Positions 32,530 through 62,631 of a DNA stretch of 64,000 nucleotides are shown piece by piece. Made by a program: the position numbers and the translations under genes. The notes under the pieces are model-generated. The model ran no database searches. It was not told where the DNA came from and saw only the letters and a list, made by a program, of their open reading frames with translations. Origin of the DNA: Gaertneriomyces semiglobifer (Eukaryota > Chytridiomycota > Chytridiomycetes > Spizellomycetales > Spizellomycetaceae); the NCBI GenBank assembly GCA_025558075.1, contig JAHLKF010000001.1:310001-374000 (forward strand). Reading direction: 5' to 3'. Every line of letters starts with the position of its first letter. Positions within the stretch are counted from its first letter, which is position 1.

Positions 32530-33249
32530 TCACTTCTTGCCAGACTTCTTGGTCTCAACTTGTTGAGCCTTAAGCACGCGCTTGACAATCTTCTGTTCCT
32601 CAATGAGGAACGCGCGGACGATCCTGGAGCGCACACAGGATCCGCAGCGGGAGCCACCGTAAGCGCGGGTAACGTTCTTCTGGCTGCGAGACAAGCGAGC
32701 GTACTGGGTAGGGCGAAGAGCGGGAATCTGGGTGATAGGAGTTCGTAAGTAACATGCATGCACGTGTTTCACGCAGCCGCTCAGCCATCATCCGCTGTTA
32801 CTCCAGGTTGCAAATGGCCATAGTGCACTGCTGCGCTTTCCATTGAATCCACGTGGTATACCCCCACACCCGTTCAAAGAATTCTTAAGGTTCAGCAAAC
32901 TGACACGAAGCGATCCACAGGTTTTCAAGCTTCTAACACTTGTAGTTCACAAACGATCCTCTCTAACAACGCCATGAAACCCTTGTTCTCTCCTCTCTCC
33001 GCCACAAATGATCATACTTACACCAGCGAGCACGGTACCGCAGTCACCACACTTGGGGGCAGAAGCCTTCTTTGTAATGTGAAGAACAGCCAATTTTCCA
33101 CCTGCGACGAGAAAAGACTCTTAGCATTTTCCCCAGAAATCTGCCGTAAGTATCTCATTCAAGCACATACCAGGGGTCTTGATGACCCTAGTCTTGTTAG
33201 ACTTGGTGTTGTAGGACAACCTACGACGGTACGTGACGCGCTGGGCCAT
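32530..33249 (-). CDS. RPL34: Cytosolic ribosomal protein eL34
   Basis: Three exons: 33249-33171, 33101-33022, 32727-32530 (118 aa). eL34 is a zinc-binding protein of the 60S subunit. The sequence starts [20 protein letters not shown], carries CGDC and later CGSC (the zinc ligands), and ends with the conserved [20 protein letters not shown] and a Lys tail. Intron 1 is 69 nt. Intron 2 (32728-33021) is 294 nt, about four times the local norm. The exon 2 donor is GGT|GTAAGT, chosen because it gives [13 protein letters not shown], which is conserved. Confidence 0.95.
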
Positions 33250-60798: not shown

Positions 60799-62007
60799 GC
60801 CCAACACCAGCGCGGTTATGTGAGCCCTTGCTAACGCCGTTCTTGCATAGCAAAATTATGTAAATACATGGAACAAACCAGCTGTAAATAAAGATTCAGG
60901 TACATAATCCAAGTTCATGGACACAATACACCGGCTCTAGTAGGGGCCTTTTTGGAGCTAGCTGAATGATGCTGTTGAGCTAGTTCGGTCGCTGTAACGC
61001 TGCTCGCAAGTAGCGGCAGTTTGGCTGTCTATACGTGACTTGGCATCCGGGAATGATGGAGATTTTAACACATACACCAAGTGCCAACTTTTCTCGCTGA
61101 TGATGCATCATCCAGAACAATCAGGTGAATGGTAACCATGAGTAGCGATACACTGGTGGAATGTGAACATCTTTGTGAAGAATCGAATGACTGGTGGCGC
61201 CTCATGTAGTCAGCTTCCTATGGATGCGAGCAGCAAGCAATGTTCCTTGCTGACCCAGCGCAACCATAGACCGCCGACGGGTCTGCATTGTACCCATGCC
61301 CTTCCTAACCTCCTCCCAACGAGCTTGCAGATCATCACATCGTCATTGCTCGCAAAATTTGCTAGAGCGTCAAGCGATTCCCTGCAGTATTCCAGAGCTT
61401 GGTGGTAATGCACGCAGCGCTGTGTGTTCAAAAGCCTATTTCAAGTTCAGTGGTATTCGGGTTCCGGCGGGTTGTGCTGGTTTCTGTTCCTCTAGGGTAG
61501 CGTCTCATTCCCCAATGTGCAGTTATACGTATATGGCAGGAAGTGTGGTAAGATGCACTGAGGTCCTGCATTCGAGGCAGGGATGGACGTGGCTTAGGTC
61601 GACTTTCGGCAGGGTCAACAGTTTACGGTCGGTGATAATTGGCAGCGACCAGACATGACCACATACGGATCCGTCCCGGTGGAAAAAGCCCCCTTGTAAA
61701 GACCAACATCGCACTCTAGTCCTTGACCTGCGCTTGGAAGAAACTTTTGTCAAAACGGCGTCCGTCGTCGACACCAAAAGCAAGGCCATGTCGCGCTCTG
61801 GTTAGGGTTGAGGTCTATTAACATGGCTGTGCCGCAGGGGTATAGCGGATTTTTTGTTACGAGCGCCGACGTGCGTCGAGGATTTGGCAAAGGTCGACAA
61901 CGGTCTCTGCTTTTTGGAGGAGAATCGAACGGGCAAGCGTTGAGATTGCCAGTTTCCTTTGCCACTTACATCTTTTGTATTTGGATCTGGAACCATAATT
62001 TGGAAAA
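60799..62007. other. 1.2-kb stretch without a recognised gene
   Basis: The only notable frames are on the minus strand: 61523-61789 starts with an ATG (88 codons, ending LTTLPAIYV), and 61210-61431 has no ATG (ALEYCRESLDALANF). They might be exons of one small gene, but I cannot link them convincingly. The right end contains the eL37 promoter, and its start codon has a good AAAAATGACC context. Confidence 0.35.
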
Positions 62008-62631
62008 ATGACCAAGGGTACGCTGGAAAGCTTGAATGCTTTCATTTTTGCGAGGGTCTTTGCGCAATTCACTAACTCGCTTTGTTGTTCTACCGAATAG
62101 GTGTAAGTAGCTCAATGAACATGGAGATGACGTTTGCCAATGTTGCTGATGCGTACGCAGACGGAGTACTGACGAATGGCCGGATTGTTCTTTTTCTTTT
62201 GGCTCCTGGATTAGACCACTTCGTTCGGTAAGAGGCACACCAAGTCCCACACCCTTTGCCGCAGGTGTGGACGCCGCTCCTTCCACATTCAGAAGAAGAC
62301 CTGCGCTCAATGTGCTTACCCTGCTGCCAAGACTCGTCACTGTGAGTGTTAAAGACCGTTGCCTGGTGTTGCCTTTGATTCCGTGAGAGCCGCCATGTGT
62401 TTAACTGGATTATGCTGTATATAGTCGAGTGGAGCGAGAAGGGCAAGCGTAGAAAGACTACCGGTACCGGTCGCATGCGGTACATGAAGGATCTCTCCCG
62501 CCGTTTCAAGAACGGTTTCCGCGAAGGTGTGTGCACAGTTTGTTAGTTTCTTGTCGATATCTGGCCGTGACACCGCATCCTTTTTAGGCACTGTTGCCAA
62601 GCCAAAGGTTAAGGCCACCGCCACCGCCTAG
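62008..62631 (+). CDS. RPL37: Cytosolic ribosomal protein eL37, apparently with a 2-nt exon
   Basis: Five exons: 62008-62017, 62101-62102, 62215-62341, 62425-62526, 62588-62631 (94 aa). eL37 is a small zinc-finger protein at the rRNA core of the 60S subunit. The product begins [20 protein letters not shown], carries the C4 finger (CRRC, later CAQC) and ends with [20 protein letters not shown] and KVKATATA. Exon 1 ends ATGACCAAG-G and exon 3 begins ACCACTTCG, so two bases are needed to write Lys-Gly-Thr-Thr. The only way I find with canonical sites is a GT exon at 62101-62102, preceded by CTAAC and TAG and followed by GTAAGT. All other junctions are ordinary. Confidence 0.9.

What the first reader, a model, noticed from the sequence alone, without database searches (positions are those of the whole stretch)
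62008..62217. A 2-nucleotide microexon in the ribosomal protein eL37 gene
The conserved start Met-Thr-Lys-Gly-Thr-Thr-Ser-Phe is split. ATGACCAAGG ends at 62017 before GTACGC, and ACCACTTCG begins at 62215 after TTAG. Direct joining loses the frame. Between them, at 62101-62102, the two bases GT are flanked by CTAAC...CCGAATAG and GTAAGT, which are strong splice signals. Including GT restores the exact family sequence, with introns of 83 and 112 nt. A 2-nt exon in a highly expressed gene challenges exon-definition ideas and would be missed by gene finders.
Basis: partly seen in the sequence, partly recalled or inferred. Interest (0 to 1): 0.85.

Follow-up and report, generated by a model that had tools for sequence, protein, structure and literature searches.

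The report
Two-nucleotide exon in ribosomal protein eL37
In a chytrid fungus, the gene for a core ribosomal protein appears to need an exon of only two letters, and an old second copy of the gene keeps the same two-letter exon inside quite different introns, so the tiny exon looks real, although similarly small exons are known elsewhere.

Summary
The window gene reads ATGACCAAGG (62008-62017), intron (62018-62100), GT (62101-62102), intron (62103-62214), ACCACTTCG (from 62215). The best evidence is new: the same genome has a second eL37 gene (L001, ATG at 1359) with the same plan, ATGACCAAGG|GTAAGT...TTTTTAG|GT|GTGAGT...ATGTAG|ACAACTTCG. The copies differ at 21 of 44 fourfold sites, and their introns show no similarity above shuffles. 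In each copy the GT exon is the only GT-AG parse with at most two introns that yields [14 protein letters not shown]. A sequencing error or one AC-AG intron is thus unlikely: copy 2 would need AA-AG. The best protein match, identical and on a contig of the same length, is from Gaertneriomyces semiglobifer and already has the right N-terminus, so that gene model was not fooled. Against: the window's upstream acceptor scores below all 30 reference acceptors. No RNA was available. cDNA alone cannot prove the exon, because GT also opens intron 1 and the mRNA is the same either way; splicing intermediates are needed. One-nucleotide exons are published for plants and Fusarium, so this is a new member of a known kind.

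The parts
62008..62017 (+). eL37 exon 1, ATGACCAAGG (Met-Thr-Lys and first base of Gly4)
   Evidence: same 10 nt in the second copy L001:1359-1368
62018..62100 (+). intron 1, 83 nt, GTACGC...ACTAAC...CCGAATAG; weak donor and weak acceptor
   Evidence: counterpart L001:1369-1433, 65 nt, GTAAGT...TTTTTAG
62071..62076 (+). putative branch site ACTAAC, 30 nt from the end of intron 1 (motif match only)
62101..62102 (+). 2-nt microexon GT (bases 2-3 of Gly4 codon GGT)
   Evidence: same GT at L001:1434-1435
62103..62214 (+). intron 2, 112 nt, GTAAGT...ACTGAC...GGATTAG
   Evidence: counterpart L001:1436-1503, 68 nt, GTGAGT...ATGTAG
62168..62173 (+). putative branch site ACTGAC, 47 nt from the end of intron 2 (motif match only)
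62215..62341 (+). exon 3 of the eL37 CDS; an in-frame TAG lies directly before it, so it cannot be extended upstream in this frame
62342..62424 (+). intron 3, 83 nt
62425..62526 (+). exon 4
62527..62587 (+). intron 4, 61 nt
62588..62631 (+). exon 5 with stop codon

Best explanation
The gene is a working nuclear eL37 (RPL37) gene whose fourth codon, GGT, is split G|GT, with an intron on either side of the GT; the GT is therefore a 2-nt internal exon included in the mRNA. Both introns look like ordinary GT-AG introns of fungal size. Most likely they are recognised by intron definition and removed one after the other, because the acceptor of intron 1 and the donor of intron 2 lie 2 nt apart and could hardly be bound together. 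Inferred order in the window copy: intron 2 (strong GTAAGT donor) first, which leaves ...TAG|GTACC as the acceptor side for intron 1; the other order would work too, leaving AAGGGT|GTAAGT. If GT is lost (skipping, or use of AAGG|GTGTAA as a zero-length recursive site) translation stops at codon 9. Shown here: sequence, frames, unique parse, same plan in a second diverged copy. Inferred: inclusion in RNA, order of removal, intron definition, fate of mis-spliced RNA.
For: Second copy in the same genome with the same 10-nt exon, the same GT exon and the same downstream junction. Copies diverged at 21 of 44 fourfold sites (JC 0.76), 4 amino-acid-changing and 30 silent codon differences; global scores of the four intron pairs, splice signals trimmed, were reached by 301, 193, 87 and 106 of 500 shuffles, i.e. 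no detectable similarity. Exhaustive parsing (introns of 20 nt or more, middle exon under 60 nt): 0 one-intron and 1 two-intron GT-AG parse per copy, both the GT exon. No nested GT-AG parse in either copy. A joint two-copy gene model finds it in all three settings in which it was allowed. With it forbidden, the best model scores 460.2 against 482.3, loses MTKG and uses weak donors GTTGCT and GTCTCT. [TS]KGT is kept in 22 of 22 fungal or related eL37 proteins that I read, chosen from the 120 listed of 1581 hits. An identical 94-aa protein is deposited for G. semiglobifer.
Against: No RNA evidence was available. The window's intron-1 acceptor scores below all 30 reference acceptors, its donor GTACGC is above only 3 of 30 on the intron side, and its intron-2 acceptor above only 3 of 30. 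The copy-2 intron 1 has no NCTRAY branch motif in the last 60 nt, though 17 of the 34 modelled introns have one and 17 do not. The same gene-model program invented 2-nt exons in eL34 and eS7 under poor settings (maximum intron 260 nt, splittable start codon), which vanished once mended, so a 2-nt exon from it is not proof by itself. There is no general excess of 2-nt exon motifs: YAG-NN-GTRAGT 6 in 528,000 against 5.3 expected. No other species' DNA could be compared.
Confidence: 0.93

Rival explanations
1. One long intron with non-canonical ends: exon 1 is ATGACCAAGGGT (to 62019) and a 195-nt AC-AG intron 62020-62214 is removed in one step. It gives the same mRNA.
For: Gives the same protein; appears among the any-ends single-intron solutions.
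Against: In the second copy the same reading needs AA-AG. It leaves unexplained why both copies carry AG|GT|GTRAGT inside it at exactly the frame-restoring place. The other ends allowed by base ambiguity are TA-TA, CG-GA, GC-AC, CT-CC (window) and TA-TA, AG-GA (copy 2), none of them GT-AG, GC-AG or AT-AC.
Confidence: 0.03
2. Sequencing or assembly error near 62017-62019 (two bases lost), with one ordinary 197-nt intron.
For: A two-base error would restore the frame for a single GT-AG intron.
Against: The same 'error' would be needed in a second copy whose introns are unrelated in sequence, and both would happen to hold an AG|GT|GTRAGT site.
Confidence: 0.01
3. A different first exon or start codon is used, so that the ATG at 62008 is not joined to 62215.
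For: With exons under 3 nt forbidden a gene model exists that starts at 62115 in the window and at 1232 in L001.
Against: That model scores 22 lower, loses the conserved MTKG, starts at unrelated places in the two copies and uses weak donors. About 110 nt before the ATG at 62008 align between the copies (score 30, 0 of 500 shuffles reach it), as expected if this ATG and its leader are the functional ones.
Confidence: 0.02
4. A spliceosomal twin intron (stwintron) or zero-length recursive splicing rather than an exon.
For: Two abutting introns taken out one after the other resemble stwintron removal; the site AG|GTGTRAG could serve as a zero-length ratchet.
Against: No nested GT-AG parse gives the protein in either copy. 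Zero-length use of 62101 or 1434 as donor loses the frame and stops at codon 9 in both copies. The GT must stay in the mRNA.
Confidence: 0.01

Closest known systems
Single-nucleotide exon of Arabidopsis APC11 (PMC4674806, passages) and the conserved plant APC11 and VPS55 1-nt exons (PMC8831610, passages)
   Same: Constitutive, frame-critical exon far below the size the spliceosome could define across; ordinary introns on both sides; conserved within a gene family; the authors favour intron definition with one-by-one removal.
   Different: 1 nt not 2; plants; RNA evidence exists there and not here; not a ribosomal protein gene.
One-nucleotide exon of CYP621A in Fusarium (PMC12940212, 2026, passages)
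   Same: Fungal gene, ultra-small exon needed to keep a conserved motif; by its abstract it has transcript (SRA) support and calls itself the first 1-nt exon in a fungal gene. The same paper cites 2-5 bp exons in Arabidopsis, Drosophila and humans.
   Different: Ascomycete P450, 1 nt; here a chytrid ribosomal protein, 2 nt, in two paralogs with unrelated introns.
Two 3-nt exons in each of the duplicated lipS genes of Dactylellina haptotyla (PMC5639578, passage)
   Same: Tiny exons shared by two copies of a fungal gene.
   Different: 3 nt, frame-neutral in length; only mentioned in passing there.
Stwintrons sensu stricto and sensu lato (PMC7138796, section 6 part 1 read; others by listing)
   Same: Two U2 introns almost touching, removed consecutively by intron definition in fungi.
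   Different: There the introns are nested and nothing between them is exonic; here they are side by side and 2 nt remain in the mRNA.
20-nt switch microexon of Trichoderma Xlr2 (PMC11121469, passages)
   Same: Fungal microexon needed for a conserved protein segment.
   Different: Ten times longer and regulated by glucose; no regulation is shown here.

Membership tests
Microexon (internal coding exon of a few nt) | Flanked on both sides by spliceosomal introns with recognisable GT...AG ends | tested here: met
   GTACGC...TAG and GTAAGT...TAG; copy 2 GTAAGT...TAG and GTGAGT...TAG
Microexon (internal coding exon of a few nt) | Needed for the reading frame or conserved protein sequence | tested here: met
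   with GT, MTKGTTSFGK...; without, stop at codon 9 in both copies
Microexon (internal coding exon of a few nt) | Conserved in a related gene | tested here: met
   second copy, introns unrelated; other species not testable
Microexon (internal coding exon of a few nt) | Present in mature RNA as a separately spliced piece | not testable with these tools
   no RNA reads held; mature mRNA alone would not tell
Stwintron (nested U2 introns) | An internal intron lies inside an external intron; nothing between them is exonic | tested here: not met
   0 nested GT-AG parses in either copy (introns of 30 nt or more, external donor in the first 30 nt)
Zero-length recursive splice site | Donor regenerated exactly at the acceptor junction, no base kept | tested here: not met
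   losing GT gives stop at codon 9 in both copies
Non-canonical single intron (AT-AC or other) | One intron with accepted ends (GT-AG, GC-AG or AT-AC) explains the mRNA | tested here: not met
   0 one-intron parses in either copy with these ends
Functional eL37 gene | Complete eL37 with the PF01907 domain and family N-terminus | tested here: met
   two loci over the family cut-off, full 94-aa frames, identical public protein for the window copy

The most novel reading that the evidence does not exclude
The 2-nt exon is not only tolerated but kept as a control point of ribosomal protein dosage: in both eL37 paralogs each tested mis-splicing (skipping, retention of intron 1, retention of intron 2) gives an early stop (codons 9, 31, 47 in the window copy; 9, 25, 24 in copy 2), so the efficiency of a splice-one-then-the-other step across 2 nt could set how much eL37 is made, and the weak intron 1 of the window copy could make that copy the regulated one.
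Probability: 0.08. Interest if true: 0.75.

Novelty: new member of a known kind. Interest (0 to 1): 0.5.

Why it matters
It is a clean natural case of a 2-nt exon in a housekeeping gene of an early-diverging fungus, with a built-in replicate: a second copy that kept the exon while its introns drifted beyond recognition. That makes it a good substrate for asking in what order, and how accurately, a spliceosome handles an acceptor and a donor two bases apart. It also shows that mature cDNA can be blind to such exons when the exon repeats the first bases of the intron before it.

Tried and rejected
Ab initio splice model from long open frames in 264 kb: 52 groups, 27 kept, lengths out to the limit of the search, noisy; dropped in favour of introns from paralog pairs.

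Pair gene models: the first run used several minus-strand loci unreversed and is void for those pairs. The second had a 260-nt intron limit and let the start codon be split; it gave false small exons, among them 2-nt exons in eL34 (L030/L031) and eS7. The third, limit 520 nt and unsplit start, gave clean models for 6 families (13 genes, 34 introns, 47 exons); eS8 failed in all three runs and was dropped before the counts, and the third eL27 copy (L038) was left out of the counts. In the 13 genes no exon is under 6 nt except the two GT exons; the 6-nt ones are first exons (eL43).

Intron 1 and intron 2 as copies of each other: no local similarity (446 and 199 of 500 shuffles reach it). RNA structure over the two introns: z-scores 0.71, 1.26, -0.13, 0.92, nothing unusual. 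RNA genes: no Rfam match at gathering score in 10 sources of 92,491 bases. Intron retention as the norm: all retained forms stop early.

Literature: ten searches. None listed a 2-nt exon in a fungal or ribosomal protein gene; most subscription papers are not in that library. G. semiglobifer with intron gave 5 papers, seen as listing only.

Full report
What is there. The window's eL37 gene starts ATGACCAAGG at 62008-62017 and resumes with ACCACTTCG at 62215. Joined directly, it stops at codon 9; with the GT of 62101-62102 between them, and two ordinary introns further on (62342-62424, 62527-62587), the whole gene gives a 94-aa eL37. An in-frame TAG stands immediately before 62215, so exon 3 cannot be extended upstream in its frame.

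Where it is. The best protein match, 100% over 94 aa, is named for Gaertneriomyces semiglobifer and lies on a contig of 1,960,441 bases, the length of the contig holding the window. This is a chytrid, order Spizellomycetales. Since that deposited protein begins MTKGTTSFGK, the public gene model gives the same product; whether as a microexon or as a non-canonical junction I could not see, nor whether RNA guided it.

The decisive new evidence is a second copy. A search of the whole genome with PF01907 gives two loci. The other (L001, C1:1262995-1266126) reads ATGACCAAGG|GTAAGTGC...GTGCTTTTTAG|GT|GTGAGTGA...TGACTATGTAG|ACAACTTCG, with introns of 65 and 68 nt, and its later intron positions are the same as in the window copy. 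The coding sequences match at 246 of 285 bases. Of 44 fourfold sites 21 differ (JC distance 0.76); 30 codon differences are silent and 4 change the amino acid. The four intron pairs, splice signals trimmed, are no more alike than shuffled sequence (301, 193, 87 and 106 of 500 shuffles reach the score). So the introns have drifted beyond recognition while the 10-nt exon, the GT exon and its AG| and |GTRAGT borders have stayed.

Is any other reading open? Parsing with GT-AG introns, up to two introns, and the requirement [14 protein letters not shown] gives one solution per copy, the GT exon. Allowing GC-AG and AT-AC adds one odd solution in the window copy only (a GC-AG intron abutting an AT-AC intron) and none in copy 2. 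A single intron would need ends such as AC-AG in the window and AA-AG in copy 2. Nested (stwintron) parses: none. A gene model that aligns both copies codon by codon and knows nothing of the exon finds it; with exons under 3 nt forbidden, it drops from 482.3 to 460.2, gives up MTKG, and starts at unrelated places in the two copies. The same program made false 2-nt exons in other genes under poor settings, so I rest the case on the second copy and on the exhaustive parse, not on the program alone.

How strong are the signals? From 30 other introns of ribosomal protein genes (eL37 introns 3-4, eL36, eL43, eL34, eL27, eS7) I built donor and acceptor profiles. These introns were themselves found with a GT-AG-only model and generic site weights, so some circularity remains. 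Donor after the microexon: above 30 of 30 in the window, 24 of 30 in copy 2. Intron-1 donor: window GTACGC 14 of 30 (intron side alone 3 of 30); copy 2 30 of 30. Acceptor before the microexon: window below all 30; copy 2 above 18 of 30. Acceptor before exon 3: above 3 of 30 (window), 6 of 30 (copy 2). So the window's intron 1 is weak at both ends and copy 2's is not. In each interval the GT exon is the only AG-NN-GT composite there is. A summed score as high with GT as the exon occurs 7 times in 528,000 positions for the window (itself included) and 0 for copy 2. There is no general excess of 2-nt exon motifs in 264 kb (6 against 5.3 expected), so this is a single case and not a visible class.

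How it most likely works (inferred). Fungal introns are short and, in the cases studied in ascomycetes, paired across the intron (PMC5639578 passages; PMC7138796). With acceptor and donor two bases apart, the two introns are most simply removed in turn. In the window copy the strong GTAAGT suggests intron 2 first; its loss turns the weak acceptor context into ...TAG|GTACC. Either order gives the same mRNA. Skipping GT, zero-length recursive use of AG|GT, or retention of either intron stops translation at codon 9 to 47.

A trap for the proposed test. GT is both the start of intron 1 and the microexon, so the mature mRNA is the same whether GT comes from 62018-62019 or from 62101-62102. Reads of mature mRNA could be placed as an AC-AG junction or as a microexon. 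Only intermediates, lariats or mutants decide.

Compared with what is known. One-nucleotide exons are published for Arabidopsis APC11 (PMC4674806, passages), for plant APC11 and VPS55 (PMC8831610, passages) and for Fusarium CYP621A (PMC12940212, passages), the last also citing 2-5 bp exons in Arabidopsis, Drosophila and humans. Two 3-nt exons in both copies of a duplicated fungal gene are mentioned in PMC5639578 (passage). My ten literature searches listed no 2-nt exon in a fungal or ribosomal protein gene, but the library is partial. The finding is a new member of a known kind, unusually well supported by comparison and still lacking RNA proof.

Noticed in passing
whole genome; eL37, eL36, eL43, eL34, eL27, eS7 loci (L001-L002, L023-L042, L046-L051): Each of the six ribosomal protein families modelled has two or three copies in this 20.9-Mb genome, with near-identical proteins; this may reflect a genome-wide or selective duplication of ribosomal protein genes.
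   Followed up: partly
32605-33249 (- strand): An eL34 gene lies in the window, with two further copies at C1:118325 and C3:515516; its second intron is 294 nt, and 335 and 375 nt in the other copies.
   Followed up: partly
L023, L024, L025, L026, L029, L030, L031: One intron in each eL36, eL43 and eL34 copy is long (288-457 nt) against a median of 74.5 nt for the 30 reference introns. No Rfam match at gathering score in the loci searched; the window holds the L030 copy.
   Followed up: partly
C15:439151 and C27:257707 (L037, L038): Two eL27 copies have identical family scores and gave identical gene models, so they may be a very recent duplicate or a duplicated assembly piece.
   Followed up: no
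whole genome: eL31 (PF01198) gave no six-frame match even at E 10, though it is expected in every eukaryote (recalled); it may be cut into exons too short for the search, or missing from the assembly.
   Followed up: partly
public eL37 proteins P0031, P0062, P0065, P0111, P0044: Five of the 22 eL37 proteins read carry odd residues up to TKGT in place of a Met directly before it, which would fit an intron right after the ATG that annotation misplaced; two more (P0009, P0066) begin at TKG or SKG, P0009 and P0066 being marked partial.
   Followed up: no
61898-62007 and L001:1249-1358: The 110 bases before the start codon align between the two eL37 copies (score 30, 0 of 500 shuffles reach it), including a shared TTCCTTTGCCACTTACA, although the introns do not align.
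   Followed up: no
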